This document shows, piece after piece, positions 14,972 through 47,340 of a stretch of DNA of 64,000 bases (the stretch's first letter is position 1; each line of letters begins with the position of its first letter). Made by a program: the position numbers and the translations under genes. The DNA comes from Legionella cincinnatiensis (GTDB taxonomy: Bacteria; Pseudomonadota; Gammaproteobacteria; Legionellales; Legionellaceae). Location of the stretch: NCBI RefSeq assembly GCF_900452415.1, contig NZ_UGNX01000001.1, forward strand, positions 3,472,001 through 3,536,000, in the 5' to 3' direction. The notes under the pieces were generated by a model, which made no database searches, was not told where the DNA came from, and worked only from the letters and a program-made list of their open reading frames with translations.

Positions 14972-17191
14972 TTAATCGTCTGATTTTTTTCGGAATATTC
15001 TCAAAATAAGGCCGATAATAATTAAGGCAAGAAACAAAATTAGCACGTATAAAACCACATGTGAAGTAACCTGAGTTACCTTTTTCATGGTTGCTTCAGA
15101 TTCTGTTTGGCTTTGAATGTCTTCGGGTGACAAACTAGTAAAGCTTCCATTTTGAAATGATACTGCAAGATCCCCTGAAAGTGATTCTCGTTTAAACCCA
15201 TTATCCAAAAGACGCACGGCAAAATTCAGATCCGCGGGGGAATAACCATAAAGGATCATCTGATGTATGTTTGAATCTGCTTCCTCTCCCCAAATCCTTG
15301 CAAAACCTATTCCCTGACTTTTTAAAAATGCATTTTCAAAAACAGATTTATCTATATCAGTAAGCACTGGATCTTTAGTATTTTTCAAAGAAACCAGGAA
15401 GTTCTTGAACAGTTTTTTCAGATGCTCAATAAATAATGAATGACTCTTTGCGGTTGTAAAAAACAGAGTATTGTAAGAAGCGATCTTTGATTTTTCAAAT
15501 TTGGAGTGATTTAGCAGTGCAAGGGAAGTATTATTTTTCAAATTGGATGAAAAATTTATTAAGTTATTGACCAATTTTTCATTGTTATAGGCTTCTTCTT
15601 CAGAGGGCAGTGATACAAATACATTTCCCGTCATCAAAGAGGGCCAATCTTTGAGTTGCGGCTTATCTAATATATCTTCATCCTCACTGCTGAATTCTAA
15701 ATTGCTGTTCTGATAAATAATTCCCCAAGCTTGATCCAGATAATCTTTAGAACACCATGAACTGGCTAAAGACAAAACAAAGTTAATTGTTAAGTTATTT
15801 TTTCCTACAACTAAATTATTGGCCGGAAGTGGAAGTTTCAGAGTTTTAATGTCTTCCGAATCTGGAACCAACTCTACTCCACCAATAGGTACTCCATTTA
15901 AGTTAACACTCAGACTAGACAATTTTATTTTTTCAAGAAATGGACTATGGCTATATACAAGATTTAATGAGTTATTTTTTCCAAAAAACTGGGCTGGAAG
16001 ATTAAATTGGTAAGATAATGCATTTTGCCCTACTCCAAAAACCATATTATCCTTATAACCTAAATCTTGAAAAGTAATTGCAGATCGATTTTCAAAATTC
16101 TCAGGGAGATCTATTTTATTCTTAACCAAAAAAAATGATGGTTCATTTACCATCTTTTGCATCAAACCAGAACGGAGTGTACGGATGGTGTTATTTAAGC
16201 CCTCTGTAGAATTTGAAGAAATAACTAATAGTGGTTGTTGTTGATATTGAGTTAACCAGATAAAACCACTATTTTCTGGCAACACACTTCCATCTAAATT
16301 CACCCATTGTTGATTTTTTAATCGTAATAAACTAGGTTGTCCAATAGTCGTAAAATTCACATTATCGGCTGTAGCAGCAAGTACGGCAGGATGTGTAAGT
16401 GTTTTTTGCCCCAGCTCGTTTATATGTATTAAATCAAAGCTCACTCCACGCCAACTCGCTTTTTGGGCAAGGATATTTGCAAAATCAAAATAAGGAAAGA
16501 ATGACGTATCAGTCAAGTGATTTGGCAATACCAGAGTAACTACATCTTGGTATGGAGCATCTAGGTGGATAAAAGGTTGGGGGAAATTGAGTAGCGCAGG
16601 CTGCCAATCTGATTTCATATAATGATAGACAATGTCTGAGTTTCCCGAAATTGCAACCCAGTTTCCTTTATTTTCAGTATCTTGACAGATTTTATCACCT
16701 ATTTTAAACCATCCATTCAAATTAATTGTAGTTACTTTAGGCGAAATATATTCTTTAGGTATAGTTACATTCCAGTGAATCGGTTGCTGTTTATCTTTAG
16801 TGAGAAATATAGAATCAATGGGAACATCACCCACACTCATAGTTAAAGTTGAGGTATTTTCAAGTAAAGGAGAGTATTGTAGTATTAAATTTAAATCAAG
16901 GTTGTTCACTTGCCAGCTTTTAGGAATAGGTATATAAAAATTAAAAGATGGCCTGTTACCCTGCATCACTACTGTTTCAACTTTTATAAGCTTATTGAGT
17001 TTAAAGTTTCTTGTGTTACTTGTAGCTACAGGAGAAGTTGGATTTTCAGCTGATATAGCATTATGTAATGCTAATAGCCATGAAAGCAAAAAAAAGCTAA
17101 TTGTATATAAAATCGTCTTAGAACCAATCAAGCTGAAAAAATGACGAGCATTACTATCCCTATTTCGTTTTCGCATATTTCTAATGTTCAT
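14972..17191 (-). CDS. BcsB-like periplasmic glycan-export subunit (cassette 1)
   Basis: The 739-residue protein resembles BcsB, the periplasmic, membrane-anchored partner of bacterial cellulose synthase. It has an N-terminal signal or anchor (TILYTISFFLLSWLLALHNA), two related carbohydrate-binding/flavodoxin-like halves marked by TMSVGDVPIDSIFL and LSVNLNGVPIGGVEL, cysteines in IGDKICQDTENKGNW and SSWCSKDYLDQAW, and a C-terminal membrane helix (VLYVLILFLALIIIGLIL). There is no BcsA, BcsZ or BcsC gene in the window, so a cellulose role is unlikely; the partner is probably the NfrB-like glycosyltransferase encoded 103 bases upstream on the same strand. An AGGAAA ribosome site precedes ATG 17191. 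A close paralogue lies at 26477-28612. The function is inferred from family and context. Confidence 0.82.
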   Translation of the reverse strand: MNIRNMRKRNRDSNARHFFSLIGSKTILYTISFFLLSWLLALHNAISAENPTSPVATSNTRNFKLNKLIKVETVVMQGNRPSFNFYIPIPKSWQVNNLDLNLILQYSPLLENTSTLTMSVGDVPIDSIFLTKDKQQPIHWNVTIPKEYISPKVTTINLNGWFKIGDKICQDTENKGNWVAISGNSDIVYHYMKSDWQPALLNFPQPFIHLDAPYQDVVTLVLPNHLTDTSFFPYFDFANILAQKASWRGVSFDLIHINELGQKTLTHPAVLAATADNVNFTTIGQPSLLRLKNQQWVNLDGSVLPENSGFIWLTQYQQQPLLVISSNSTEGLNNTIRTLRSGLMQKMVNEPSFFLVKNKIDLPENFENRSAITFQDLGYKDNMVFGVGQNALSYQFNLPAQFFGKNNSLNLVYSHSPFLEKIKLSSLSVNLNGVPIGGVELVPDSEDIKTLKLPLPANNLVVGKNNLTINFVLSLASSWCSKDYLDQAWGIIYQNSNLEFSSEDEDILDKPQLKDWPSLMTGNVFVSLPSEEEAYNNEKLVNNLINFSSNLKNNTSLALLNHSKFEKSKIASYNTLFFTTAKSHSLFIEHLKKLFKNFLVSLKNTKDPVLTDIDKSVFENAFLKSQGIGFARIWGEEADSNIHQMILYGYSPADLNFAVRLLDNGFKRESLSGDLAVSFQNGSFTSLSPEDIQSQTESEATMKKVTQVTSHVVLYVLILFLALIIIGLILRIFRKKSDD

Positions 17192-17294
17192 TGTTATTTC
17201 CTATAATTTGATACTGTATCAGAAGATCTTCTGCTTTTGAATCTCATCAAAATTTGTAACTCTATAAATTTAAATTAATTATATTGTATCTGTG

Positions 17295-19130
17295 TTAATA
17301 TAAGAGCAAAAGCCTAGCTCGCAGAGGGGCTACTCTATGACGGATCTCATTTCGAAATTGTTTATCTGGTATATCTTCCAGGCCAATAGAAACTATTCCT
17401 TCATCAATACTGATTAGCAAACAATGGTGGTCAAGTAACCAATAATAGTTTTCTGTAGGGATCGCTGCTAATTGGTTCTGATGCAGTACTGGCAAATTCT
17501 TCTTTCGCACAAGTTGCATGTTGTATTGCAAGGCAAGAACTGACAAAAGTGTTTCTTCATCAATATCTTTATTTTTAATAAGAATTTTCCCAATTTTTTC
17601 ACCTGTTTCTTTCTGTTGCTTTAACGCATGAACTAAGCGTTCAGTTTTTATTTGATGTTTTTCTATCAATAAATCTCCCACATGAAGCTCATACTGAGCG
17701 AGTAAATCTGGTCCTGGGAAAAAATTATCTGTTTTATCCCATTTGGGTACGACTTTAGGTTTGTGCTTAATAAAAAACTGACTATAAGCTCTTATAAGAA
17801 CATGCGCATAAAGAATATTGGAATAAATGGTACGAAATGGGCAAGTTAGCGCTGGTAGCAATCCATAAACTCGATAAACTCCAATTACGCGCTGCAAAAT
17901 TCGGTCAATCATAAAAAAAGTATCTGCCACAATCAAATACCATACCCAAGGATTCAAATGCAACATCATTTCCAGAGTCAAATAACCGGGAACAAAAAGG
18001 GAGTAAATATAGAAAATAAACCAGAAAATAAATAATACATATCCACACATGTTAACAATATGCGAAATAGTCGCTTTTCTATCATGAAATAGAGTGTACT
18101 TTATCGCAAAACTTCCAGGCCATCCTGAATAATACCATTCCTGAAAAGCAATACCGATAGTCCAGCGTGTTCGCTGACGCACAGAAGCAGAATATTCCAT
18201 GACGCGTAATGAGCGAGTGGCAACCAACATTTTTTTTGTGCGATAGACCGTTTTTCCCCAAAAAAGCAATGAAGGTTTCGAAACAATACGTTTGACCCAA
18301 AAAGTCATAAAGATAGTGTTTAACCGGTGTACTTTTAATTTAAGTGCACAACTATAATCTTCTGTTAAACTAAACAAGGAAAAGGGTTCACCATTATTAT
18401 GAAGTGCAAGTGTTTCTAAAGCCTTACGTGAAAAACCGGTTCCTACACCTGCCGATGGAATAAATCCATGAAGTAACTCCCTAACCACAAGGTCTTTGGT
18501 ATGGATTTCTGCAAACTCATCATTATATGTCCAGTGAGTTATGTATTTCATCGAAATAGGCAAAGGAACAACAGGTAGTTGGACCATATCTTTACGAGGT
18601 ATAACATAGTTGTATAATTTGAAAGATAAAGGATCTATGACATCTTCTGTGTCATGCATTACAAAGATTTCATATTTTATATTTAATTCTTGTTCACGAT
18701 TCTGGATATATTTATACATGGAATTTAAATTTTTTGCTTTGGTCGTAGGCCCTGGCAAAGGTGAAAAAACACAAAAAATGTTAGGAAATATATCCTGCAC
18801 TTCTCTAATTACTGCGACTGTATCTGGATCGTTGGAATATACACCTATAAATATATCGTAGTTTTCATATTTGATTTCATCAAGGTTATATCTCAGCATA
18901 TTGGCAATCGCAGGTTCGTGCCAACAAGCAATCATAAGCGCAATTCTTTGTTCAGGAACTTCAAACAACTGTTTTAAATTCAATGGCGTATATTTTTTCA
19001 TTTTTAATCTGCGCCAGGGAAAATAAATCCAGTATACTAAATCAATAAAAAAATCATCTAATCCCGAGATGAAAAAGAAAACAGCCGCAAACATGAGAAA
19101 ATACCACATCCAGAAAAAAAGAAGATCCAT
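17295..19130 (-). CDS. NfrB-like inner-membrane glycosyltransferase with C-terminal MshEN domain (cassette 1)
   Basis: This 611-residue protein is a family 2 processive-type glycosyltransferase resembling NfrB. Membrane helices lie at the N-terminus (FWMWYFLMFAAVFFFISGL) and around residues 350-440. Catalytic motifs are visible: HDTEDVIDP for metal and sugar-nucleotide binding, SLTEDYS (TED), and RQRTRW (QxxRW-like). The C-terminal part from about residue 483 holds two 24-residue MshEN motifs (483-506 and 512-535) separated by the five residues KETGE, the layout that binds cyclic di-GMP. E. coli NfrB also has this domain and is stimulated by c-di-GMP. The first motif begins HVGDLL and the second KIGKIL, where the consensus has Arg, so binding needs testing. 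GGAGGG precedes ATG 19130. Substrate is inferred to be UDP-ManNAc or a derivative. Confidence 0.87.
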   Translation of the reverse strand: MDLLFFWMWYFLMFAAVFFFISGLDDFFIDLVYWIYFPWRRLKMKKYTPLNLKQLFEVPEQRIALMIACWHEPAIANMLRYNLDEIKYENYDIFIGVYSNDPDTVAVIREVQDIFPNIFCVFSPLPGPTTKAKNLNSMYKYIQNREQELNIKYEIFVMHDTEDVIDPLSFKLYNYVIPRKDMVQLPVVPLPISMKYITHWTYNDEFAEIHTKDLVVRELLHGFIPSAGVGTGFSRKALETLALHNNGEPFSLFSLTEDYSCALKLKVHRLNTIFMTFWVKRIVSKPSLLFWGKTVYRTKKMLVATRSLRVMEYSASVRQRTRWTIGIAFQEWYYSGWPGSFAIKYTLFHDRKATISHIVNMCGYVLFIFWFIFYIYSLFVPGYLTLEMMLHLNPWVWYLIVADTFFMIDRILQRVIGVYRVYGLLPALTCPFRTIYSNILYAHVLIRAYSQFFIKHKPKVVPKWDKTDNFFPGPDLLAQYELHVGDLLIEKHQIKTERLVHALKQQKETGEKIGKILIKNKDIDEETLLSVLALQYNMQLVRKKNLPVLHQNQLAAIPTENYYWLLDHHCLLISIDEGIVSIGLEDIPDKQFRNEIRHRVAPLRARLLLLY

Positions 19131-19447
19131 TTTCCCTCCGTCCTCGCGCTATTTAACTATTTAATAAAAGTTTGGATTGATTCCTTTAATATTACAAGGG
19201 AGGACCTCTATTTTTAACAAATCTAGTAGATCGTCAATCGTATGGGGCCCCTGAAATTTGTAATAGTGAGCGGAAAAACCGTTATATTTCTCCAAATTTC
19301 TCGGCACGAACAAATCCTATTCCCACATCAATGATTTTTTAAACGGCCATCTATAGAGCTACCCTATATCCCATCAGGATTTCTTATTACTCACCATTTT
19401 TCGCTTCAATATACCTGCCATAGCAAGTAATTAATTTATCTTCAAAG
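19131..19447. other. Gap between nfrA-like and nfrB-like genes of cassette 1
   Basis: Within an apparent transcription unit this 317-base gap is unusually long. No frame of significance, RNA gene or strong hairpin is visible. A separate promoter for the glycosyltransferase gene is possible. Confidence 0.4.
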
Positions 19448-21886
19448 CTAAAATCGATAATACATTTCAAACATAGCTACATTGGAAGCATAGCTTGATC
19501 CATAGGGGTTTATTTCAGGACCATTTACTTTTATATATTGGCCAAATCTTCTTTCAAGACGAAATGCAACCGGCCAAGTATTATTAGGAACGATCGCGAT
19601 CCCTGGTCCGTATTCAACCAGGTTATTGTAAAAATATTTATTCGTATCAACGATAAGAAATCCTCTAGCATACGCGATAAGACTCATATTGCGATATTGC
19701 ATGACTCGATATCCTTTTCGAATACGCCCGTAGGTAATCCAATCATTTCGGTATCTGGAAAACCAGGAAGAATCACCATAAAAATCATCTGCTTGGGAAA
19801 AAGGAAACACTATGCGCTCAGCATAACTAGGTAGCGGCCCCCAGTAATACCATGATAAGACACCGCCCCGCCTATCATCTCGCCAACGATCCCTGTTCCT
19901 ATATATAAGATCGTAGGCCATTCCTGCTTCAAAATAAAATATAAGGGGAATTTTTGTATTAGTGTAATATCGAATTCCAGCACCGTTCAAAATATAATTG
20001 TCATCATAAATACTAGGTAGCTGGCCATTACCCCCACTTCGTGAGCGACTATCTTTATTTGTGTAATTATTATAATAGACCTCAATTTGATTTCGTTTAC
20101 CAAAGCTCCGTCCCACACGTAAGTGTTCAGGAATTACAAACAGAGAAAATCGGCTATATTCAAAAGGCGCAGACCAAATATCGGCAAACCAAGGCGGATT
20201 GAAAAACTGGAACCGTTGACTACCTAAATTAATCATAGCCTTATAGCTTTTATCTCTGATATCAGAGTCATGAGAGGGAAACGCTTTTTTGAACCATAAA
20301 AAAGCATCTCGCTTTTTTCCTAAGTCATCAAATAAATAACCAATTTGTAATGCTAGATCATAGCTTTCAGGTTGCAACTCCCAAGCCTTGATAAGATAAC
20401 TTACGGCCTGTGCATTATTTTTTTCGCGAATCATTAAGAAACCCATTTCCCGGAGGGCACGATAATCATTAGGATAGTGTTTTAGAACCTGTTCCAGGAT
20501 TTTTTGGGCTTGTTGTGGATGTTCTTTTTGTAGCGCATAATAATTATTCATTAAATGGTCATAAAGGGATAGTGGAGTTTTTTTATTTTCATTTCTTATT
20601 GTTAACATTCGTAAGCCAGTGCGTGCTTTATTGATAACGGCTGGATTGGAGGATTTTAATGCTAAACTAAAAAATTCTTGCGCTTTTTTATTTTCTTTCA
20701 ATAAAGAATATACGTAAGCTCCTTGCAAGGTAATATCCCAATTATGACTATCGATCTCGTGGGCTTTGAGAATGTAAGGGAGTGCTTTTTCTGGTTGGTG
20801 CTCCTTAAGAAAAAAATAACCCATTTCCATCTGTAAGGTTGCATTTTCAGGCTGCCTCTTAATAATTTCTGATAGAATCTTTACTGCTTCTTTTGTTCTT
20901 CGTTCTCTTAAAATGTAATAGATGTCTTCGGGCGTTAACCTATCAGGTAATTGTGTGGAAACAATACCTTTTTCCAGCATATCCAATAAGTTTTTAGCCT
21001 GATTTTTAATCTTATCATCTGAGGACTTAGCGCCTTGCAAGAGCCAATATTCAGCTTGAGGGAGATTTCCGGAACGTAACCAAGCCTCTCCAAGAAGGCT
21101 CAAAAGCTCGTCATCATGCTTAATGGACCACGCTTTGGAAAAAAAAACAATGGCATCTTTATAATCATTTTCCCGCAATTTTTGGATCCCTTTTTCTCGA
21201 ATCATTAATACATTGTTTGGATACAACGAAAGAATATGGTCAAGAAATATTTTTGCCTGTTTAGGATTAAACTTTAATAGCACATGGTAAGTGTGAGCTT
21301 GAGTCTGATCCGTGGTAACGGGAATATTGCTATTGATGCCCATATTTCTTACTACTGTTTTCGCGGCAGTAGAGATTGTTGCTAATTGATTTTCAGGAGA
21401 CATTCCAGATTTTTTTTTGGCGTAGCGATCTAAAATATCCTGAGCTTTAATACCGTTTATTCCTTTATTGGTTGCAGCAACTTCACGAAAATATTTAAGT
21501 GCCTCTTCATATTGATGGAGTGAATTTAACGTATAGCCTATTTGCATTGTATAATCAGAATTTTCGGGATTAATCCGATGTGCAGCTTTTAAATAAACTA
21601 GAGCCTTTTGGTAATTTTCTTCCTGCAACAACAAATACCCAAGTTCAGATTGTATCAGCTCGTTGTCTGGAAATTTTTGCGCTGCTTGCAACAAAATCAT
21701 CCTTGCCGATGAAGGATCTTTTAGCCTTAATGAATAATAATCGGTAAGAAGGGTATTAGCATTTGATTCATTAGTAGATGATGCATGCAAATATCCAACA
21801 TGCAATATAAATACAAAAGGCCCCACAAGGAGCAGCAATATAATAGCATTTCGTAAAAAAACCAACCATGAAATGAAAAACTTCAT
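19448..21886 (-). CDS. NfrA-like outer-membrane protein: TPR array plus C-terminal porin-like domain (cassette 1)
   Basis: The product (812 residues from ATG 21886; a TTG one codon earlier is less likely) has a signal peptide (FISWLVFLRNAIILLLLVG), then about a dozen TPR-type repeats to residue 545 or so, recognised by recurrent pieces such as ELGYLLLQEENYQKALVYLK and EMGFLMIREKNNAQAVSYL. The last 260 residues form a domain rich in aromatic residues and alternating strands and ending in an aromatic residue (MFEMYYRF), typical of an outer-membrane beta-barrel and similar to the NfrA C-terminal domain. NfrA of E. coli (phage N4 adsorption protein A) is the outer-membrane component of a secreted-glycan system. 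This protein probably plays the same export role for the cassette 1 glycan. Its divergent neighbour is a wecB-type gene. Confidence 0.83.
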   Translation of the reverse strand: MKFFISWLVFLRNAIILLLLVGPFVFILHVGYLHASSTNESNANTLLTDYYSLRLKDPSSARMILLQAAQKFPDNELIQSELGYLLLQEENYQKALVYLKAAHRINPENSDYTMQIGYTLNSLHQYEEALKYFREVAATNKGINGIKAQDILDRYAKKKSGMSPENQLATISTAAKTVVRNMGINSNIPVTTDQTQAHTYHVLLKFNPKQAKIFLDHILSLYPNNVLMIREKGIQKLRENDYKDAIVFFSKAWSIKHDDELLSLLGEAWLRSGNLPQAEYWLLQGAKSSDDKIKNQAKNLLDMLEKGIVSTQLPDRLTPEDIYYILRERRTKEAVKILSEIIKRQPENATLQMEMGYFFLKEHQPEKALPYILKAHEIDSHNWDITLQGAYVYSLLKENKKAQEFFSLALKSSNPAVINKARTGLRMLTIRNENKKTPLSLYDHLMNNYYALQKEHPQQAQKILEQVLKHYPNDYRALREMGFLMIREKNNAQAVSYLIKAWELQPESYDLALQIGYLFDDLGKKRDAFLWFKKAFPSHDSDIRDKSYKAMINLGSQRFQFFNPPWFADIWSAPFEYSRFSLFVIPEHLRVGRSFGKRNQIEVYYNNYTNKDSRSRSGGNGQLPSIYDDNYILNGAGIRYYTNTKIPLIFYFEAGMAYDLIYRNRDRWRDDRRGGVLSWYYWGPLPSYAERIVFPFSQADDFYGDSSWFSRYRNDWITYGRIRKGYRVMQYRNMSLIAYARGFLIVDTNKYFYNNLVEYGPGIAIVPNNTWPVAFRLERRFGQYIKVNGPEINPYGSSYASNVAMFEMYYRF

Positions 21887-21988
21887 CAATATTGAGAATC
21901 CATTTTAGCTTTAATATTTACTATAATTACATTCGATAGTTGTTTACAATAATTTTTTGTATTTTATGTTTACGTCAAGGTAATTATA

Positions 21989-23101
21989 ATGAGAAAAAAA
22001 AATATTGTCTGTATTTGTGGAACACGGCCTGAAGTTATTAAATTTGTTTCTATTGTACGAGCGCTGGAAAAAACTGATTGGGCCAATGTTATTTTAGTCT
22101 CTACAGGCCAGCATCGTGAAATGCTCGATCAGAAATTAGGTTATTTTGGTTTAAAACCAAAACGCGACTTGAATCTGATGCAACCTAATCAGCAACTTGC
22201 CCAATTGACCGCGCGATTAATCGCTGCAATTGATGAAGCTCTAAAAGAAGAAGCTGTTGATTTAATTCTGGTACAGGGAGATACAAGCACGACTTTAGCC
22301 GCAGCTATGGTTGCTTTTTTCAACAAAATCCCATTAGGTTATATTGAATCGGGGTTACGTTCAGGGGACATTTTTCATCCATTTCCTGAAGAAATAAATC
22401 GTATTCTTATATGTCGTCTTGCCACACTTAATTTCGCTGCCACCGAGAAAGCGAAACAAAATCTTTTAGCAGAGGGCATTCGTGCTGATTCTATCTATGT
22501 TACAGGAAATACGAGTATTGACATCCTATTAGAAGAGGCCCAAAAGCCAATTACTGTAAAGATCCCAATAGATTCGGGCAAAAAATTGATTTTTGTTACG
22601 ACCCATCGACGAGAAAACTTTGGAGAGCCCCTAGTACATATTTGCCAAGGAATACGTAAGTTTGTTGACCTAAATAATACAGTTCAGGTAGTTATCCCAG
22701 TTCACAAGAACCCGAATGTTTATGAAGTGATACACAGAATTTTAGGCAATCATCCACAGGTACTGCTCACAGATCCTCTTGACTATGATCAGCAGGTTGC
22801 TTTGATGAAAGCCAGTTACTTTATTATGACTGATTCAGGTGGTATTCAAGAAGAGGCTCCAACATTTGGTAAACCTCTTTTGATATTACGGGAAAATACT
22901 GATAGGCCGGAGGGTATTGAAGAAGGTGTCGCTCAAATCATTGGTACGTCAACAGATTCTGTTTTTAATGCGGCATGCACGTTGTTGCAAAACCGTGCAT
23001 TATGGGAAAAAATGGCTCGGAAAACAATGCCTTATGGTGATGGCCATGCCGCTGAAAGAATTCTCGAAATTATTAGAAACTGGTTTACCATATCTCACTA
23101 A
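21989..23101 (+). CDS. wecB: WecB-type UDP-N-acetylglucosamine 2-epimerase (cassette 1)
   Basis: This 370-residue enzyme interconverts UDP-GlcNAc and UDP-ManNAc in the cytoplasm. The non-hydrolysing epimerase motifs are present: GTRPEVIKF at the N-terminus, TGQHREMLD, VQGDTSTTLAA, ESGLRSGDIFHPFPEEINR, VTTHRRENFG, and TDSGGIQEEAP, which includes UDP-binding residues. It is divergent from the nfrA-like gene with a 102-base shared promoter region. In E. coli, WecB-made UDP-ManNAc feeds the NfrA/NfrB glycan, so the linkage here is functionally sensible. A second, clearly diverged copy lies at 25393-26499. I see no sign of inactivation. Substrate specificity is by family only. Confidence 0.92.
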   Translation: MRKKNIVCICGTRPEVIKFVSIVRALEKTDWANVILVSTGQHREMLDQKLGYFGLKPKRDLNLMQPNQQLAQLTARLIAAIDEALKEEAVDLILVQGDTSTTLAAAMVAFFNKIPLGYIESGLRSGDIFHPFPEEINRILICRLATLNFAATEKAKQNLLAEGIRADSIYVTGNTSIDILLEEAQKPITVKIPIDSGKKLIFVTTHRRENFGEPLVHICQGIRKFVDLNNTVQVVIPVHKNPNVYEVIHRILGNHPQVLLTDPLDYDQQVALMKASYFIMTDSGGIQEEAPTFGKPLLILRENTDRPEGIEEGVAQIIGTSTDSVFNAACTLLQNRALWEKMARKTMPYGDGHAAERILEIIRNWFTISH

Positions 23102-23528
23102 TTCACCTATTTTATGAAGAAGGATGCACGAACACAGAATTTTTAGAACAGTTGATGTCACTTTCGTAATATATAGATTATTTCTCATCATGGCATTCAT
23201 AATAACAAGTAATTTCCACGTACATAGTTAAACAGTCATTTTCACTTCTCTAGTAAAACATGACTTTGGGAGAGTCATGAGCTTTTATTTATATTTCACC
23301 TCAAATGTTCGAAAATCAATATAACTGATACTATTTGACACTTATTATTGTGATTAGACCAACCTTAATATATTAGAAATATGGACAAATATGTAAACCT
23401 ATTACTTACAATATTCGATGTGCTATTCACTCTGTCTTTCGATATTCTTAAAGATATTGGTTGAGAATTGTAGTTTTTTAACTTGTGTCCTATTCTTAAT
23501 ATCATAGAACATCACTTAATTTAAAGAC
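23102..23528. other. AT-rich region before the CMAH-like gene
   Basis: A 427-base gap with stops in all frames and no recognisable RNA gene. It should contain the promoter of the MBL/Rieske gene. A single CTTAATATC half-site occurs near 23494, but no second half lies at the right spacing. Confidence 0.4.
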
Positions 23529-25124
23529 ATGCAAATCACCTACTTAGGGCATGCTGGTTTTTGTTTGGAAACTAACTCTACAGTAATCATTATGGATCCC
23601 TGGCTATCGCCACATGGGGCTTTTGATGCTGCCTGGTTTCAATACCCTAAAAATCATCATATGGCAGAACATGTAAGAAAGATATTAAATACTAATAAGA
23701 AAGATAAGTATCTTTATATTAGCCATGAGCACAAAGATCATTTTGACATAGAGTTTTTGGAATCTATTGAAAACCGTGATTTTACGCTTATTCTAGCTGA
23801 TTTTTATCATCCAGTAGTTAAAAATAATTTAATAAAACGCCATTACCAATGCAAAGAAATTATTAATCTAAAGGATAGCGAATCGTTTTATTTCAAAGAT
23901 GGATTTTTAACATTATTCATATTAGATGTAGAACTTGATTGTGACTCAGCAATCCTTGTAAAAACAGATTCAGGAAGTTTCCTTAATCTAAATGATTGTA
24001 AAATTCATGAAAGATTGGCGATGATAGATAAAAATTACGGCCCAATAGATATTTTAGCAGGTCAATTTTCTGGAGCGGTTTGGCATCCAACTTGCTTTCA
24101 AATGGATCAAGAAAAATATTCAATTATTTGCAAGAACAAAACATTACGAAAATTTGAATATATTGCCAAATCTATTGAAACAATGAAGCCTTTAATGTAC
24201 TTACCTTCGTCTGGACCTCCCTGCTTTTTAGACCCGCTCTTATTTTCAATTAATAATCAGGAAATAAATACATATCCGCGAGCAAGGCAATTAATTGAGT
24301 ATCTAGATATGCATTTTCTTGATAAGCAAATCCAAACGCAGTGGCCCGAACTTATGCCAGGAGATGTTCTTGATACCCAAAATTTAAAATTCACTTATCT
24401 ATCTCCTATCAGAATAGATGATAAAGACTTCAAAGAGTATGTTTATGCTTATGCGAAACAGTTTGAAAATTTTTTTAAACAACGCCAAATTGAAAACTCA
24501 AAAATTAATCCGCAACAAGTTTTTATTCAATTAGGAATTGAATTAAAAAAAAGATTGGAAAAAATGGAGCCAGTTAGAAAATATTTATCAACTTTTTTAT
24601 ATTTCTCTCTTGAGGAATATAAAAAAGAAATATATTGTGTCGATTTTCAAGAGGGCACAGTAAATATAACCAATGAAGTTGATCGAGCTAAAGATTTTTT
24701 TTGGATTACTACTCCTGCCTGGCAAATTAACAAAGTATTTAATAAGGAAATCAGTTGGCCTGATTTTGCTCTCACTTTTCGCCTCCTCATAGAAAGAGTA
24801 CCTGATATTTACAATACTCTCGTGCATGGATTTACAACCCTAGAAACTGAAAGCTTGGAGCGCTTTTGCCAAGTGTTCTTAAATATTCTATCAAAGAATG
24901 AACGCATTAAAATCAATTACAAAGGTAAAACTTATTCTGTTTTAAGATATTGTCCTCATCAAGGCGGCGATTTGTCAAAAGGTTGGATTGAGGACTGTTT
25001 TTTAATATGTCCTAGGCATCAATGGAAATTTGATCTTGAAAATCATGGTAAATGTAGATACAATAACGCCAGTATCGATGCAGTTTGTCTAAATGATGTT
25101 AATAACAAGAAAAAAGAAAATTAA
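23529..25124 (+). CDS. CMAH-like protein: metallo-beta-lactamase fold plus C-terminal Rieske domain
   Basis: The 531-residue protein has two parts. Residues 1-260 or so form a metallo-beta-lactamase fold: it starts TYLGHAGFCLE, has the metal motif H66-x-H68-x-D70-H71, and contains DPWLSPHGAFDAAWF, LNLNDCK and FAGG-like GQFSGA segments that resemble the corresponding half of CMP-Neu5Ac hydroxylase (CMAH). The C-terminus is a Rieske [2Fe-2S] domain with C475-x-H477 and C494-x-x-H497. In animal CMAH, as I recall it, the Rieske domain is N-terminal, so the order here is reversed. CMAH hydroxylates an N-acetyl group to N-glycolyl using electrons from cytochrome b5. Sitting between two amino-sugar glycan cassettes, this protein may hydroxylate an N-acyl group of UDP-ManNAc, a sialic-acid-like sugar or the polymer. 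The reaction is inferred. Confidence 0.78.
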   Translation: MQITYLGHAGFCLETNSTVIIMDPWLSPHGAFDAAWFQYPKNHHMAEHVRKILNTNKKDKYLYISHEHKDHFDIEFLESIENRDFTLILADFYHPVVKNNLIKRHYQCKEIINLKDSESFYFKDGFLTLFILDVELDCDSAILVKTDSGSFLNLNDCKIHERLAMIDKNYGPIDILAGQFSGAVWHPTCFQMDQEKYSIICKNKTLRKFEYIAKSIETMKPLMYLPSSGPPCFLDPLLFSINNQEINTYPRARQLIEYLDMHFLDKQIQTQWPELMPGDVLDTQNLKFTYLSPIRIDDKDFKEYVYAYAKQFENFFKQRQIENSKINPQQVFIQLGIELKKRLEKMEPVRKYLSTFLYFSLEEYKKEIYCVDFQEGTVNITNEVDRAKDFFWITTPAWQINKVFNKEISWPDFALTFRLLIERVPDIYNTLVHGFTTLETESLERFCQVFLNILSKNERIKINYKGKTYSVLRYCPHQGGDLSKGWIEDCFLICPRHQWKFDLENHGKCRYNNASIDAVCLNDVNNKKKEN

Positions 25125-25153
25125 CCTATGCATGTAAAGTCAAGTTATTGTTT

Positions 25154-25178
25154 GGGAATATAAAAATTGACTATTCCC
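25154..25178 (+). terminator. Hairpin after the CMAH-like gene
   Basis: Arms GGGAATA (25154-25160) and TATTCCC (25172-25178) pair perfectly around an 11-base loop, 30 bases after the stop codon. No pronounced T-run follows directly, so termination is probable rather than certain. Confidence 0.5.
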
Positions 25179-25392
25179 ACGCCCCATATTTAATTTCATT
25201 TCCGCAATGTAGAATCAAGAGCAATCTCGTCAATAGTTGAACAAACGTTTTTATGTAAAGGTTCATCAAATAATTATATAAAATTTAATAAATTCTGTGA
25301 AAATCACAATGGTCGGATTTGTTTTTCATTGACAGTTGGTCAGCCACAATTTATGTTAATAAATTATTGACCCATTTTATTATGATAAAACA

Positions 25393-26499
25393 ATGACGAC
25401 AAAAAAAATTATATGTGTCATTGGGACTCGCCCAGAAGCCATAAAAATGGCTCCCGTGATAATGGCTCTTAAAGAACAAAAATGGGCGAGCATCTATGTC
25501 CTAGCTACAGCACAGCATCGTGAAATGTTAGATCAAATGTTGGCACTTTTTAATATTAAACCAAATTTTGATTTAAATATTATGAGGCCAAATCAATCCT
25601 TATCCAATCTTACGTCAAAGTTAATGGATGACCTCGATAATATATTACGAGCAGGGGCTTATGATTTGGTACTTGCTCAAGGAGATACTACGAGTACATT
25701 TGCCTCTGCTTTAGCAGCATTTTATTTACATATTCCTTTTTACCATATTGAGGCGGGTCTGCGCTCTGGAAATATCAGACATCCATTCCCGGAGGAAATA
25801 AATAGATTGCTCGTAACACAACTCGCAGCTCTCCATTTCGCGCCAACATTAAGCAATAAAAATAATTTAATGGCGGCAGGTATATCAGAAAACTCCATAT
25901 ATGTCACAGGAAATACTGTGATTGATGCTCTGCGTTATATATCGAAACAACCAATTCAGAATAATCTACATTTTGATAAGGACAAACGCTTAATTCTTGT
26001 AACTAGCCATAGACGGGAAAATTTTGGGAAACCTTTTCAGGAGATTTGCACTGCTTTACGAAAATTGGCAGCTGAATTTGATGATATAGAGTTTTTATTT
26101 CCAGTCCATCCAAATCCCAATGTTACAAAAATTGCATATCAAGAACTGGGTGAGATACCACAAATCCACCTAACACGTCCCCTGGATTATAATATTTTTG
26201 TTCATGTTCTTAATCAATCCTATCTCGTTTTGACAGATTCTGGAGGAATACAAGAAGAGGCACCTGCTCTGGGTAAACCCGTATTAATCTTAAGAGAAAC
26301 AACCGAACGCACGGAAATTATAGAGGCTGGTGTAGGGAAACTTGTGCCTCTAAATGCAGATGACATATTCAGCTATACCGCAGAATTGCTGAGATCTAAA
26401 GAGAAATATAATAATATGGTAAAAACTATATTGCCTTATGGAGATGGAACTGCCGCACAAAAAATTGTAAACGTAATCAAGGACGTCTACTTTTTATAA
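25393..26499 (+). CDS. wecB: WecB-type UDP-N-acetylglucosamine 2-epimerase (cassette 2)
   Basis: The second epimerase has 368 residues and the full motif set: GTRPEAIKMAPVI, TAQHREMLDQ, AQGDTTSTFAS, EAGLRSGNIRHPFPEEINR, VTSHRRENFG and TDSGGIQEEAPALGKP, followed by ETTERTEIIEAG. It differs from the first copy at many positions, which argues against a very recent duplication. The gene is convergent with the BcsB-like gene and the two coding regions overlap by 23 bases at their ends. The preceding 268-base gap should contain its promoter. It presumably supplies UDP-ManNAc for the second glycan; why two epimerases are kept is unknown. Confidence 0.92.
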   Translation: MTTKKIICVIGTRPEAIKMAPVIMALKEQKWASIYVLATAQHREMLDQMLALFNIKPNFDLNIMRPNQSLSNLTSKLMDDLDNILRAGAYDLVLAQGDTTSTFASALAAFYLHIPFYHIEAGLRSGNIRHPFPEEINRLLVTQLAALHFAPTLSNKNNLMAAGISENSIYVTGNTVIDALRYISKQPIQNNLHFDKDKRLILVTSHRRENFGKPFQEICTALRKLAAEFDDIEFLFPVHPNPNVTKIAYQELGEIPQIHLTRPLDYNIFVHVLNQSYLVLTDSGGIQEEAPALGKPVLILRETTERTEIIEAGVGKLVPLNADDIFSYTAELLRSKEKYNNMVKTILPYGDGTAAQKIVNVIKDVYFL

Positions 26500-28612: not shown

Positions 28613-28666
28613 TAGAATATCCTTATTTTTCTTGATACTTTAATACTAATATAAAAAAACAGAGCG

Positions 28667-30706
28667 ATGCAAATGAATCGGAGGAGAATAATTTGGACTA
28701 TCCTATTCATTTTAATTATTTTTTATCTACTCATTCATTCTGCAATGAAAAATATTCATTCAGTCAAAAGAGATATTCCAACGTTACTTAATTTCTATTA
28801 TACCCATAAAAATACAGAACCCCTAAAAGCAAAAGAGGCGTTAGATCTCATTTTGCAACAAGATCCAAACAACCCAGTTGCAATTGGAGCTAAAACAAAC
28901 TGGTTTCTTCAGAAAGGCGATACTCATTCTGCTTTGAATTTTCTACAGGAAAATCATTTACTCTATCCCAAAAACCAAACCATTACTTATGAATTAGCAA
29001 AAATTTACATCCTATTGAATCAATATAAAAATGCAAAACCCCTCTTGACCTCACTCATGTTGGCGACTGATAAAATAAAACAAAAAGAAGCGCAAGTGCT
29101 TTATCAATCTATATTCCCCGAAGAGCATATTAGCCCAGTACAAGAAAATCTTTCCTCCTTTATTGAGCCAGTTCATTTTCATCATAAATTGGATTTTACT
29201 GCATTGTATCAAAGAGTTGATGAAATTATGAATCTACAGCCTGAGTCTGCACGTAATTATTTGCAACATATCCTTTTAATTGATCCCAATAATTCAGAGG
29301 CGTACTCAAAACTTGGATACCTTGAATTAATGCAAAAAAATAATGAAAGCGCCCTGTTCTATTTAGTCAAAGCATTTTCAATTAAGCCAAATTCCACTCT
29401 TGCGGTCCAAATAGCTTATTTGTTTGCACAGAAAAAAGATAAGAAGCAAGCTGTATTTTTCTTTACCTATGGTCTCACTTATGGAAACGCACAGTTAAAA
29501 AAACAATCTCAACAAGCACTTAGTTATTTAGAAAAAGAACAACAAATAGCCCAAAACTCAACACCCCCCCAAAATTTAAGCCCAGAAGAAATACTTTGGA
29601 ATCGTTTTTATCAAAATAGGAAAATTAATCCAAGTCTTGCTTCGAAAACCATCTTTATCTTATTGTCCATGCATCCAAAAGATATAAGAACTATTAAAGA
29701 AGCAGCATACTTTGAAATGGCACAAAAAAATACAACTCAAGCTATTGAACTGTGGAAAAGAGCGTACGCTCTAGATCATAATCCAGCGTCAGCATTAAGT
29801 ATCGGATATCTGTACGATGAGCAAAATAATAAATATTTTGCATTCCGATATTTTAATTATGCGTCGAAAACGTCGAATATGGAGGTCAAAACCAAAGCAG
29901 AGCTTGCAAAAACTGGATTAGCAGGTAGCCAATTTAAAATCTTACCTAATCCTTATTTTGCAGAATTTTATACTTTTCCCTTTTATTATAGCCGCTTTGA
30001 TTTGGGTGTCTTACCCATAATTTCGCGATTAGGTAAGACCATAAAACAAATAAATACTGATTTATATTTTTCATATCGTAGAACAAAAGACAATCGCTCT
30101 GGAACGTTACAAGGGCTACTTATCCAAAACTCGATCCCCCAGATTTTTGAAGACAATGCAGCTATTTATTCAGCAGGTATTCGTAAATTTCCTTGGCCGA
30201 AAATACCTGTATTAGCATTCCTTGAAATAGGTGGAGCCGAAGATTTAGTTTATAAATTTCGGCCAAGATGGCGCAAAGATGTTCGTGGCGGGCTTGTTTA
30301 CTATAATGCTTGGGGAGTTAAACCGACTTATACTAATAAGCTTACATTGCCACTTAAGTGGATCATTACACTCTATTCCGATATGATTTATTACTCACGA
30401 TACAATGACAACATCATCAGCACATCTTGGTTTAGGCCTGGTTTCAGAGTTGCTACTTACCATAGCTCTTCACTGGATCTTTATATGGCTAATTATTTAA
30501 TTCTGGATAAAAATCATGAGTTTTATAATAATATCTATTCTCTAGGCCCCGGCATTGCTTTGCAGCCAAATAATCGTATCAATGTTGTTTTTCGTTTCGA
30601 AGCATTGCAAGGATACTATATTCCTGTAAATAGCCCTACCCCAAATCCTTATAAATCCCATTACTGGAATAATCTTGCTATGCTAGAAATATATTTTCGT
30701 TTTTAA
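28667..30706 (+). CDS. NfrA-like outer-membrane TPR protein (cassette 2)
   Basis: The 679-residue protein has an N-terminal hydrophobic segment (IIWTILFILIIFYLLIH), which may be a signal or an anchor, then TPR repeats over about residues 35-420 (for example KLGYLELMQKNNESALFYL, EAAYFEMAQKNTTQAIELW), and a C-terminal domain of about 260 residues ending MLEIYFRF. The C-terminal domain shares motifs with the cassette 1 protein, such as FYTFPFYYSRFDLGVLP versus APFEYSRFSLFVIPEHL, and the NPY[GK]S ending. It has fewer repeats than its paralogue. It lies 25 bases before the nfrB-like gene on the same strand, an evident operon. By analogy with NfrA it should form the outer-membrane exit for the glycan. 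Confidence 0.82.
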   Translation: MQMNRRRIIWTILFILIIFYLLIHSAMKNIHSVKRDIPTLLNFYYTHKNTEPLKAKEALDLILQQDPNNPVAIGAKTNWFLQKGDTHSALNFLQENHLLYPKNQTITYELAKIYILLNQYKNAKPLLTSLMLATDKIKQKEAQVLYQSIFPEEHISPVQENLSSFIEPVHFHHKLDFTALYQRVDEIMNLQPESARNYLQHILLIDPNNSEAYSKLGYLELMQKNNESALFYLVKAFSIKPNSTLAVQIAYLFAQKKDKKQAVFFFTYGLTYGNAQLKKQSQQALSYLEKEQQIAQNSTPPQNLSPEEILWNRFYQNRKINPSLASKTIFILLSMHPKDIRTIKEAAYFEMAQKNTTQAIELWKRAYALDHNPASALSIGYLYDEQNNKYFAFRYFNYASKTSNMEVKTKAELAKTGLAGSQFKILPNPYFAEFYTFPFYYSRFDLGVLPIISRLGKTIKQINTDLYFSYRRTKDNRSGTLQGLLIQNSIPQIFEDNAAIYSAGIRKFPWPKIPVLAFLEIGGAEDLVYKFRPRWRKDVRGGLVYYNAWGVKPTYTNKLTLPLKWIITLYSDMIYYSRYNDNIISTSWFRPGFRVATYHSSSLDLYMANYLILDKNHEFYNNIYSLGPGIALQPNNRINVVFRFEALQGYYIPVNSPTPNPYKSHYWNNLAMLEIYFRF

Positions 30707-30731
30707 TGACAATTGATTAAGGACATATCTG

Positions 30732-32606
30732 GTGCCCAATGAACTAATTTTATTTTTTTATTACATTATGTGGTATTTTCTCATCGCCTTAACTTTTATG
30801 TTCATTATATCAGGCTTAGATGATTTCTTTATAGATCTTTACTTTTGGATAAGATACATCTTTCGTTTATGGAAAACACGCCATTATGAACCATTAACTT
30901 ATCAAAAAATGGCAGAAAAAGAAGAGCAGCTCATAGCCATATTAGTACCTTGCTGGCATGAAGCAGGGGTAATTGGCACTATGCTAAGACACAACTGCTA
31001 TTCTATTGATTATACAAACTATTATATTTTTGTCGGCGTGTATCCAAACGATCCTACAACAATTGAGGAGGTAGAAGAAGTTGCTCGAGAAATAATGCAT
31101 GTTCAATGTGTTATTGGAGAAACTCCTGGTCCAACCAATAAAGCAGCTAATTTAAACAGTATTTACCTGTATACGAAAAAATTTGAACAAACAATCAACA
31201 AAAAATTTGATATTTTTGTGTTTCATGATTCAGAAGATATTATTCATCCTTTATCTTTTAAACTTTATAACTACTTGTGTCCTAAAAAAGATATGATCCA
31301 AATTCCAATCTTTCCTTTAAAAGTAAATTTATGGAATTTTACTCATTGGATGTACGCTGACGAATTTTCAGAAAATCATACTAAAGATATTATTGTTCGG
31401 GAATCTATTGGAGGACATGTTCCCTCTGCCGGCGTGGGAACTGCTTTTTCAAGAAAAACATTACAATTACTTGAAAACCCTAAAACAAGAGTTCCTTTTT
31501 CAACAGAGTCGCTCACGGAAGATTATCATACCTCTCTTGAAATTCGATTAAAAAAATTAAAATCCATCTTTGCTGCTCAGAAAGTAACTTATAAAAAATG
31601 GCAACCTCGGGGAATTTTTCGTTCAGGCTATATTCAAAAACCAATTCAAGAGTACATTGCAACTCGCGCTTTATTTCCTATGGAGTACACAAAAGCCGTA
31701 CGACAAAAAACGCGTTGGATAATTGGCATTATTTTTCAAGAATGGAAGCATGAATGGCCTAATGCATGGCCTGTACGATTTACTCTTGCTCATGATAGAA
31801 AGGCATTCCTCACCCATTTTGTCAATGGTTTTGGCTATGTGGTCCTTATTTTTTGGATACTTTATTCTCTGTTTACCCTTGAAAATCCAGAGTATCCCTC
31901 TTTACAAGAACAATTTAATTTGCACCCATGGGTATGGGCTTTTATTATAGGAGCTACATTTTTAATGTTTGAGCGCGCGCTACAACGAATTATTGCCATT
32001 CGCAGGATCTATGGTTGGAGCGCTGCTTTTTTATCAATTCCACGATATTTTTATAATAACCTAATTAACTTCCATGCAATAATACGCGCATACATTATCT
32101 ATAATTCAACACCTAAAACACAAAAAAGTGCAAAACAACCAACATGGGATAAAACAGATCATCATTTCCCTGGCAGCCACATCTTAACTCCTCATCATTT
32201 AAAATTGGGCAGTTTATTAATTTCAGCAGGTCTAATAAATCAACCTCAACTAGAACAAGCAATTATAGAACAGAAAAAAACTGGGGAGCTTCTTGGTGAA
32301 ACTCTTTGTCGCATGAAAATAATTAATCGCCAACAATTGATGGCGATTCTAGCAGATCAATTCAAATTAAAACTATTCCCTCAAAGCAAACTTGAAAACG
32401 CTAAAAATTCATGTTACTCATTACTGCCCAAAAAGATAAACCAGTTTGCTACAAAAAATAATCTCAGTGTTATAGCAATAAATGAAGCAAAATCTGAATT
32501 AACAATTAGCCTAGATGATCCCACTAATGAATATTTAATCGAACAAATTATTAATCGAGTTAGCCCTTATACAGTTATTTTTGTTCTTACTGATCCTGAT
32601 TCATAG
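30732..32606 (+). CDS. NfrB-like inner-membrane glycosyltransferase with C-terminal MshEN domain (cassette 2)
   Basis: This 624-residue paralogue of the cassette 1 enzyme carries the same motifs: N-terminal membrane helix with ISGLDDFFIDL, VPCWHEAGVIG, HDSEDIIHP, SLTEDYH and RQKTRW, then further membrane helices and a C-terminal MshEN domain. The two 24-residue motifs are at 491-514 (KLGSLLISAG...) and 520-543 (LLGETLCRMK...), again separated by five residues (KKTGE). The consensus Arg at motif start is Lys and Leu here, so the second half-motif is the more degenerate of the pair. The start is GTG 30732 with AAGGA about 8 bases upstream. It is predicted to polymerise an amino-sugar glycan when c-di-GMP is bound. 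The gene ends 185 bases from a convergent diguanylate cyclase gene. Confidence 0.87.
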   Translation: MPNELILFFYYIMWYFLIALTFMFIISGLDDFFIDLYFWIRYIFRLWKTRHYEPLTYQKMAEKEEQLIAILVPCWHEAGVIGTMLRHNCYSIDYTNYYIFVGVYPNDPTTIEEVEEVAREIMHVQCVIGETPGPTNKAANLNSIYLYTKKFEQTINKKFDIFVFHDSEDIIHPLSFKLYNYLCPKKDMIQIPIFPLKVNLWNFTHWMYADEFSENHTKDIIVRESIGGHVPSAGVGTAFSRKTLQLLENPKTRVPFSTESLTEDYHTSLEIRLKKLKSIFAAQKVTYKKWQPRGIFRSGYIQKPIQEYIATRALFPMEYTKAVRQKTRWIIGIIFQEWKHEWPNAWPVRFTLAHDRKAFLTHFVNGFGYVVLIFWILYSLFTLENPEYPSLQEQFNLHPWVWAFIIGATFLMFERALQRIIAIRRIYGWSAAFLSIPRYFYNNLINFHAIIRAYIIYNSTPKTQKSAKQPTWDKTDHHFPGSHILTPHHLKLGSLLISAGLINQPQLEQAIIEQKKTGELLGETLCRMKIINRQQLMAILADQFKLKLFPQSKLENAKNSCYSLLPKKINQFATKNNLSVIAINEAKSELTISLDDPTNEYLIEQIINRVSPYTVIFVLTDPDS

Positions 32607-34799: not shown

Positions 34800-34818
34800 T
34801 TTCTATTCCTTTAATTAG

Positions 34819-37443: not shown

Positions 37444-37550
37444 TATTACTTCCTGTAATCGCAACCGCTGGAGTTTAAGATACTTAAAGCGTCTGTTCAG
37501 ATGCTTTATTTATTTAAATTATATAAGATAGAACCAATTTCGGATAGGTA

Positions 37551-40075: not shown

Positions 40076-40230
40076 TTTAATTACATTCTTATCCTGAACT
40101 CACGTGAAATTACGCTTTTTTCCAGGCTTAAGAAAGGGACTAGAGCATCATCACAATGTGAAACAAACTTGTGTGCCACAGCGCGCTCAGCGAAGCAAAG
40201 AGCAGGCCTCGCTAGATAGGCATTTCTTAT

Positions 40231-47273: not shown

Positions 47274-47340
47274 AACACACAATGAATACATTTATAGCGC
47301 TGCATCAGTTAATTGCTCGTACTCTTTGAGGAGAACCAAA

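What the first reader, a model, noticed from the sequence alone, without database searches (positions are those of the whole stretch)
14972..32606. Two complete, rearranged copies of a c-di-GMP-controlled NfrA/NfrB/BcsB/WecB glycan cassette
Four gene types occur twice within 18 kb: BcsB-like (14972, 26477), NfrB-like glycosyltransferase (17295, 30732), NfrA-like TPR/outer-membrane protein (19448, 28667) and WecB (21989, 25393). The order and strand differ: cassette 1 has nfrA, nfrB and bcsB on one strand with wecB divergent; cassette 2 has nfrA and nfrB on one strand, bcsB divergent and wecB convergent. The established E. coli pathway (NfrA, NfrB, WecB) makes a ManNAc-based surface glycan switched on by c-di-GMP, but as far as I recall it does not use a BcsB-like subunit. 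Two parallel, BcsB-containing versions side by side look undescribed. Inference: the organism makes two distinct secreted amino-sugar polymers, or one polymer with two synthases.
Basis: partly seen in the sequence, partly recalled or inferred. Interest (0 to 1): 0.8.

Follow-up and report, generated by a model that had tools for sequence, protein, structure and literature searches.

The report
Twin glycan-export cassettes, one with hydroxylase
A Legionella species carries, side by side, two old and distinct gene sets that look built to make and export a signal-controlled surface sugar polymer, and one of them moves between species together with an enzyme predicted to alter the polymer's amino sugar.

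Summary
In detail: BcsB-like, NfrB-like, NfrA-like and WecB genes each occur twice at the stated places and strands. BcsB, NfrB (with MshEN) and WecB pass profile tests; the NfrA-like proteins match only in their TPR part and miss Pfam NfrA_C. BcsB-containing Nfr loci are already in print (Achromobacter; Acinetobacter PGR), so that part is not new. The copies are old lineages (NfrB 42% identical), not a recent duplication.

New points. The unit is 96-97% DNA-identical in L. gratiana at another site, carB 89%. (2) All 13 long Legionellaceae homologues of that gene adjoin wecB or an NDP-sugar epimerase/dehydratase gene, mostly in exopolysaccharide loci. Prediction: N-glycolylated exopolysaccharide. 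(3) Among cassette-2 relatives, BcsB goes with its own NfrA clade but not its own NfrB clade. The neighbouring diguanylate-cyclase operon occurs at that site without cassettes.

The parts
14961..25144 (.). Cassette 1 as a transferable unit (bcsB1-nfrB1-nfrA1 / wecB1-mblR)
   Evidence: 96.4% (8192 columns) and 97.5% (1681 columns) DNA identity to L. gratiana with edges just past the bcsB1 and mblR stop codons; fourfold-site identity 82-94% against 57-70% for 7 backbone genes
14972..17191 (-). bcsB1, BcsB-like inner-membrane-anchored periplasmic protein
   Evidence: PF03170 E 4e-43; hydrophobic C-terminal segment read
17295..19130 (-). nfrB1, GT2 synthase with C-terminal MshEN c-di-GMP domain
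   Evidence: PF13641, NF053729 46.1 bits, 34% over 604 to E. coli NfrB
19448..21889 (-). nfrA1, TPR protein with C-terminal region of outer-membrane type (NfrA-like by position)
   Evidence: TPR families; no NfrA_C match; ends in YYRF
21989..23101 (+). wecB1, UDP-GlcNAc 2-epimerase
   Evidence: TIGR00236 413.8 bits
23152..23463 (.). 312-bp AT-rich stretch (28.5% GC) between wecB1 and mblR, absent from the L. gratiana copy
   Evidence: gap between the two alignment blocks; GC
23529..25124 (+). mblR, UlaG/MBL-Rieske protein of the NamH (UDP-MurNAc N-acetyl hydroxylase) family; predicted N-acetyl hydroxylase of a UDP-HexNAc
   Evidence: Pfam Rieske and Lactamase_B_3; full-length match to a Rhodococcus ruber NamH-type protein, hhalign 100%, E 2.5e-45 over 484 columns; invariant HxHxDH and Rieske CxH...CxxH ligands
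25393..26499 (+). wecB2, UDP-GlcNAc 2-epimerase
   Evidence: TIGR00236 443.7 bits
26477..28612 (-). bcsB2, BcsB-like protein
   Evidence: PF03170 E 3.9e-43
28667..30706 (+). nfrA2, TPR protein with C-terminal region of outer-membrane type (NfrA-like by position)
   Evidence: TPR families; no NfrA_C match; BcsB-associated NfrA clade 100/100
30732..32606 (+). nfrB2, GT2 synthase with C-terminal MshEN c-di-GMP domain
   Evidence: PF13641, NF053729 55.2 bits, 37% over 532 to E. coli NfrB
32792..37464 (-). Neighbouring Hpt-REC-GGDEF / REC / MHYT hybrid kinase operon; backbone neighbour, not part of the cassettes
   Evidence: Pfam; same operon at the same place without cassettes in G058 and G088

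Best explanation
Two anciently diverged synthase-dependent exopolysaccharide systems of the Nfr/PGR kind were brought separately into one chromosomal site. In each, WecB makes UDP-ManNAc, a membrane GT2 synthase (NfrB-like) gated by c-di-GMP through its MshEN domain polymerises it, BcsB guides the chain through the periplasm and a TPR outer-membrane protein exports it. Cassette 1 (14961-25144) moves between Legionella species as a unit and includes a NamH-family hydroxylase (mblR) that most likely turns the N-acetyl group of the UDP-amino-sugar precursor into N-glycolyl, so that cassette 1 would secrete an N-glycolyl amino-sugar polymer chemically distinct from that of cassette 2. Shown here: gene identities, domain make-up, lineage age, transfer as a unit, family membership of mblR, recurrent linkage of mblR to epimerase-family genes. 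Inferred: substrates, c-di-GMP control, BcsB role, N-glycolylation, two different polymers.
For: Domains and families; E. coli NfrB homology over the GT and MshEN parts with TED and QxxRW motifs visible in both copies; WecB linkage as in the literature (passages). Two lineages: NfrB tree separates copy 1 and copy 2. Unit transfer: edges, fourfold sites, other chromosomal site in L. gratiana. mblR in NamH family. mblR beside an epimerase/dehydratase-family gene or wecB in 13 of 13 long Legionellaceae homologues (two partial hits dropped); control 0 of 380 ORFs in 35 loci not chosen for mblR (positive control). Loci are pel (5 profile-tested, 1 by gene layout), YaiO-OMP with or without tested GT2 (2 tested, 1 by layout), nfr (2), epimerase-family only (2).
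Against: No biochemistry. mblR does not itself reach Pfam PF25451, the NamH middle domain. The two mblR copies in nfr context are one recent transfer, so nfr linkage is a single event. In 2 of 13 loci no synthase was recognised beside mblR. The epimerase-family neighbours score under all equivalog cut-offs, so their substrates are unknown. The NfrA-like C-termini are not shown to be NfrA. In L. gratiana wecB2 is broken, so its cassette 2 may be decaying or fed by WecB1.
Confidence: 0.6

Rival explanations
1. Two Nfr/PGR-type systems make the same plain ManNAc polymer under different conditions (or are redundant); mblR acts on another pathway and is beside wecB1 by accident.
For: Both cassettes carry the same core set; in L. 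gratiana wecB2 is broken while nfrA2, nfrB2 and bcsB2 are open, as if one WecB serves both.
Against: mblR moved with cassette 1 as one block ending at its stop codon, and its homologues lie beside epimerase-family genes in 11 of 11 other long cases, control 0 of 380. NfrB1 and NfrB2 are 42% identical, more distant than NfrB2 from other genera (up to 67%).
Confidence: 0.25
2. A recent tandem duplication of one cassette followed by rearrangement (a plain reading of 'two copies').
For: Same four gene types within 18 kb; BcsB1 is nearer BcsB2 (40%) than the BcsB of G102/G136 (22-23%).
Against: NfrB 42%, NfrA 32% identity; in the NfrB and NfrA trees copy 1 groups with G102/G136/G091 and copy 2 with other genera; L. 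gratiana has a 97-99% cassette 1 but a 46-56% cassette 2.
Confidence: 0.05
3. The GT2 proteins make a cellulose-like glucan, with BcsB in its usual role; WecB serves another pathway.
For: BcsB is known from cellulose synthase; one search finds no cellulose-type BcsB elsewhere in the own genome.
Against: The GTs score as NfrB and carry MshEN; each cassette has its own wecB; the BcsB proteins are far below the cellulose BcsB equivalog cut-offs while 20 of 143 family genomes carry a separate BcsB at over 600 bits; published PGR and Nfr data point to ManNAc.
Confidence: 0.05

Closest known systems
E. coli Nfr/NGR system (nfrB-nfrA-ybcH with wecB; PMC8669469 and PMC8669472, passages seen)
   Same: GT2-MshEN synthase, TPR outer-membrane partner, WecB dependence, c-di-GMP link
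   Different: E. coli has YbcH (DUF4434) and no BcsB; its NfrA carries NfrA_C, the window proteins do not; no hydroxylase; wecB is elsewhere
Achromobacter xylosoxidans nfrA-nfrB-wecB-bcsB cluster (PMC8669472, passage)
   Same: BcsB homologue together with nfrA, nfrB, wecB
   Different: has periplasmic O-acetyltransferase homologues; no second cassette or MBL-Rieske gene is mentioned in the passages seen
Acinetobacter baumannii PGR locus (PMC12507263, section 11 read)
   Same: BcsB-like PgrD, NfrB-like PgrC, WecB-like PgrF, outer-membrane porin; BcsB-like gene needed for phage adsorption
   Different: extra PgaB-C-like PgrE and degenerate GGDEF PgrA; single locus; no NamH-type gene mentioned
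NamH, UDP-MurNAc hydroxylase of mycobacteria and relatives (PMC10050696 and PMC11555704, passages)
   Same: N-terminal UlaG plus C-terminal Rieske, colinear full-length homology, conserved metal and cluster ligands
   Different: 25-26% identity; acts on a peptidoglycan precursor in Actinobacteria, here linked to exopolysaccharide loci of Gram-negatives
Pel loci with UDP-GlcNAc C4-epimerase PelX (PMC9135694, passages)
   Same: an NDP-sugar epimerase coupled to an amino-sugar exopolysaccharide operon, as seen beside mblR homologues
   Different: no NamH-type gene is mentioned in the passages seen; the window itself has nfr, not pel

Membership tests
Nfr/NGR-type ManNAc exopolysaccharide system | GT2 synthase homologous to NfrB with MshEN domain | tested here: met
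   score below the NfrB equivalog cut-off (419.1 and 467.8 of 1170 bits), so NfrB-like rather than NfrB
Nfr/NGR-type ManNAc exopolysaccharide system | Outer-membrane protein with NfrA_C (PF13283) | tested here: not met
   no match at E <= 5 for either C-terminus; only TPR part aligns; C-terminus alone gives probability 19, P 0.0012 (controls 0.5 and 0.3), suggestive at best
Nfr/NGR-type ManNAc exopolysaccharide system | UDP-GlcNAc 2-epimerase WecB | tested here: met
   both above cut-off
Nfr/NGR-type ManNAc exopolysaccharide system | c-di-GMP binding switches synthesis on | not testable with these tools
   domain present; binding not measured; in NfrB1 the first-motif position is HVG where E. 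coli has PLG
BcsB family | PF03170 above gathering score | tested here: met
   148.1 bits for both, cut-off 21; far under cellulose BcsB equivalog cut-offs
NamH (UDP-N-acetylmuramate hydroxylase) family | UlaG/MBL domain then Rieske domain, colinear homology along the whole protein | tested here: met
NamH (UDP-N-acetylmuramate hydroxylase) family | SCP2_Rv3818 middle domain PF25451 | tested here: not met
   R. ruber protein 164.7 bits; the window protein has no match though its middle aligns to the R. ruber protein by profile
NamH (UDP-N-acetylmuramate hydroxylase) family | hydroxylates an N-acetyl group on a UDP-amino sugar | not testable with these tools
   no enzyme assay; inferred from family and neighbourhood
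Cassette-encoded diguanylate cyclase partner | DGC gene belongs to and moves with the cassette | tested here: not met
   HK-REC-DGC operon present at the same place without cassettes in G058 and G088; not seen in the 20-kb stretches of 4 other genomes

The most novel reading that the evidence does not exclude
NamH-type hydroxylases are a general tailoring module of secreted amino-sugar polymers in Legionellaceae: one enzyme family, always next to the gene of a UDP-HexNAc epimerase, N-glycolylates the precursor of three different export systems (Nfr, Pel, YaiO/PgaC-like), and cassette 1 secretes a poly-N-glycolylmannosamine, a polymer kind for which my paper searches found no report.
Probability: 0.4. 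Interest if true: 0.75.

Novelty: new variant of a known kind. Interest (0 to 1): 0.55.

Why it matters
The core system is known, so the pair alone is of modest interest. What would matter is the tailoring: N-glycolylation by NamH is described mainly for peptidoglycan of Actinomycetales (passage), and here the same enzyme family is tied to secreted polysaccharides in Gram-negatives. If true it changes the predicted chemistry of these polymers, which in E. coli and Acinetobacter are phage receptors, and gives an easy chemical marker. The NfrA/BcsB result is a testable hint that BcsB couples to the outer-membrane exporter rather than only to the synthase.

Tried and rejected
Recent duplication: rejected on identities and trees. 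Local diguanylate cyclase as a cassette part: rejected on synteny. BcsB as the counterpart of E. coli YbcH by homology: no match; YbcH is DUF4434. In 6 of the 27 plasmid records with NfrB-like hits that I opened, BcsB was annotated or found in 3 (Variovorax, Nitratireductor, Paraburkholderia), DUF4434 without BcsB in 2 (Zymomonas, Thalassospira), neither in 1 (B. pyrrocinia); Variovorax also has a DUF4434 gene nearby, so they are not strictly exclusive.

NfrA identity by sequence: tried against E. coli NfrA, against three ~1000-aa partners of other NfrB genes with E. coli NfrA, and against four NfrA_C proteins; TPR only. C-terminus alone inconclusive. A home-made strand-alternation score did not separate barrel from non-barrel for NfrA1. 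Co-variation of BcsB with NfrA as a distance correlation: r 0.79, the same as with NfrB, so it adds nothing beyond the tree result; this is against a special BcsB-NfrA tie among BcsB-bearing loci. In the larger trees the BcsB label needs 6 changes on NfrB and 3 on NfrA. The AU test used 18 type-2 rows picked after that first tree was seen; 4 are BcsB+.

Mobile-element signs at the edges of cassette 1: no direct repeats at the edges, no tRNA in the window. The order-wide mblR search covered the same number of genomes with the same hits as the family search, so it is not independent. Phylum sample: 1 of 398, the own genome only. Class sample: 4 of 369, two of them Legionellaceae, one partial.

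Paper searches (10). For absence claims: NfrB with Legionella gave 1 paper (listing); N-glycolyl with exopolysaccharide and hydroxylase gave 3 (listing); N-glycolylmannosamine with bacteria gave 11 (listing; all sialic-acid or host topics by title); Legionella with N-glycolyl gave 27, of which 8 were listed. Subscription papers are not in this library.


Full report
1. What is there. BcsB PF03170 matches both BcsB-like proteins at E 4e-43. Both NfrB-like proteins have a GT2 domain and an MshE-type c-di-GMP domain above its cut-off, and match E. coli NfrB at 34% over 604 and 37% over 532 residues. Both WecB proteins pass TIGR00236. The NfrA-like proteins have TPR repeats, an aromatic-rich C-terminal region ending in F and no NfrA_C match, while E. 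coli NfrA matches it at 9.7e-68. They are NfrA by position and architecture, not by a met profile test.

2. The genome and its kin. The window is part of a 4.10-Mb genome in two contigs. Its genus-mate G058 is Legionella gratiana: contig length and mblR position agree with NZ_LNYE01000006.1. carB is 89% identical at the DNA level, so the window comes from a close but different species. NfrB-like genes occur in 27 of 143 genomes of the family. In 22 of these the gene is whole; 5 hold only pieces (G008, G010, G021, G038, G039). Two genomes, the own one and L. gratiana, have two whole copies. BcsB beside nfr was found in 6 of the 22: own (twice), G058 (twice), G093, G037, G102, G136. BcsB of any kind occurs in 32 of 143 genomes, 20 of them with a cellulose-type BcsB at over 600 bits.

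3. Two old lineages. NfrB1 and NfrB2 are 42% identical, NfrA 32%, BcsB 39%. In the NfrB and NfrA trees copy 1 groups with G102, G136 and G091, copy 2 with genes of other genera (27 and 26 rows; partial rows and two distant outgroups left out). So this is not a recent duplication. One oddity: BcsB1 is nearer to BcsB2 (40%) than to the BcsB of G102 and G136 (22-23%), so BcsB may have been swapped between lineages.

4. Cassette 1 is a mobile unit with an extra gene. Window 14961-23151 and 23464-25144 align to L. gratiana at 96.4% and 97.5%. The edges are just past the stop codons of bcsB1 and of 23529-25124. Fourfold-site identity is 82.1% for BcsB1 and 90-94% for NfrB1, NfrA1, WecB1 and the extra gene, against 57-70% for seven backbone genes. 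In the window the double cassette, with two further genes (11911 and 13457), fills 21.4 kb between a Tim44-like gene (10548-11369) and a diguanylate-cyclase operon (32792-37464). In L. gratiana and G088 the same two neighbours are 1.1 kb and about 0.1 kb apart. In L. gratiana both cassettes lie elsewhere on the same contig, about 53 kb from that site, with cassette 2 on the other side of cassette 1 and diverged (46-56% protein identity). The diguanylate-cyclase operon thus stands at this site without cassettes in 2 of 6 genomes looked at; in the 20-kb stretches of the other four it was not seen. It could still serve the cassettes. In L. gratiana the wecB2-like gene is broken (stop codon and frame change) while wecB1 is open.

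5. The extra gene. 23529-25124 encodes an MBL (UlaG-like) domain followed by a Rieske domain. tblastn against plasmids finds full-length relatives in Rhodococcus and Nocardia at 24-27% identity (4 of 8 records cover at least 80%). The R. ruber relative carries Pfam SCP2_Rv3818 (164.7 bits, cut-off 28.2), the family named after Rv3818, which is NamH (passages). It lies beside lysophospholipid acyltransferase, Cof-type HAD, amidase and, further off, serS genes, which I recall as the namH neighbourhood. Profile comparison with the window protein's family gives probability 100, E 2.5e-45 over 484 columns. The metal motif HxHxDH (66-71) and the Rieske ligands C475, H477, C494, H497 are invariant in 11 aligned sequences. 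The window protein itself does not match PF25451. NamH turns the N-acetyl group of UDP-MurNAc into N-glycolyl (passages).

6. Where its relatives sit. Of 15 hits in 143 family genomes, 13 are long and 2 partial (G048, G077, dropped). In all 13 the immediate neighbour is wecB (window, L. gratiana) or a PF01370-type NDP-sugar epimerase/dehydratase gene (11 of 11). In loci not chosen for this gene 0 of 380 ORFs have such a neighbour (the probe set works). Five of the loci have profile-tested pel genes (GH114/PelA, PelB barrel, PelD, PelF) and G070 looks the same by layout. G044 has a YaiO outer-membrane protein and a PgaC-like GT2, G005 a YaiO protein, and G008 looks alike by layout. G071 and G061 show epimerase-family genes without a recognised synthase. 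In the tree the nfr-linked pair nests beside a pel-linked gene, G024 (100/98). Two marine relatives (L095, L097) sit beside a polysaccharide deacetylase; a Prochlorococcus relative (L096) has no telling neighbour. The gene is rare: 4 of 369 genomes of the class and 1 of 398 of the phylum, the own one.

7. BcsB and NfrA. Among 18 type-2 loci (4 with BcsB, 14 without), the BcsB-bearing NfrA proteins form one clade (100/100), whereas for NfrB a single BcsB clade is rejected (AU p 0.0065). Of the 14 genomes without BcsB beside nfr, 12 have no BcsB anywhere and G098 and G126 have one in another cluster. I read this as nfrA and bcsB being exchanged together on an nfrB-wecB backbone. Limits: the rows were chosen after the first tree; four positives only; the distance correlation shows no special BcsB-NfrA tie.

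8. What is known. BcsB-containing Nfr loci are in print for Achromobacter and Acinetobacter, and wecB-bcsB-nfrB-nfrA operons are seen on plasmids of Variovorax, Nitratireductor and Paraburkholderia. A NamH-type gene as part of an exopolysaccharide locus was not met in my ten paper searches (listed under Tried and rejected), which cover open-licence papers only.

9. Mechanism. WecB makes UDP-ManNAc; NfrB, gated by c-di-GMP, polymerises it; BcsB and the TPR outer-membrane protein carry the chain out; in cassette 1 the NamH-type enzyme probably hydroxylates the N-acetyl group of the UDP sugar before polymerisation. UDP-GlcNAc is the common precursor of both epimerase kinds found beside this gene family and may be the true substrate. 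None of these steps was shown here.

Noticed in passing
window 47326-51894, 53202-57692, 60489-61733: Three ORFs match SidE-family Pfam domains (two with DUB, PDE and mART domains, one with PDE only).
   Followed up: no
window 13457-14278: Mitochondrial-carrier-family protein (PF00153) in the same 21.4-kb insertion as the cassettes; recalls LncP of Legionella (name recalled).
   Followed up: no
window 11911-13347: ORF with only below-cut-off Pfam matches (BNR_2 best), also inside the insertion.
   Followed up: no
window 32792-37464: MHYT hybrid histidine kinase, REC and Hpt-REC-GGDEF operon next to the cassettes; its own site partner, not theirs.
   Followed up: partly
window 40027-40104 (+): Rfam LPR69 (Legionella RNA 69), 41.2 bits with cut-off 40.
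   Followed up: no
window 23152-23463: 312-bp AT-rich stretch absent from the L. gratiana copy of cassette 1; no repeats found.
   Followed up: partly
L039 ~4159-5240; L051 6624-7774; L062 3-1882; L063 9554-11463; L139 8249-10147: Several nfr or wecB genes of other genomes are in pieces (wecB2 in L. gratiana, wecB in G097, nfrB in G039 and G021, nfrA in G206); some may be assembly errors.
   Followed up: no
L146-L148, L150-L152: A further BcsB-like protein in Legionellaceae heads a four-gene run with ORFs of about 716, 620 and 830-1040 aa, separate from cellulose and nfr.
   Followed up: no
NfrA-like proteins: BcsB-associated NfrA-like proteins end in F in 8 of 9 cases (G293 ends in L); those without BcsB end in L, I, V or M in 15 of 17 (G091 and G166 end in F).
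   Followed up: no
L080, L081, L082, L084, L085: A second epimerase/dehydratase-type gene lies in the same stretch as the mblR relative and its adjoining one.
   Followed up: no
L096 9959-11494: A Prochlorococcus single-cell genome (AG-402-O16) encodes a full-length relative of the MBL-Rieske protein, 29%.
   Followed up: partly
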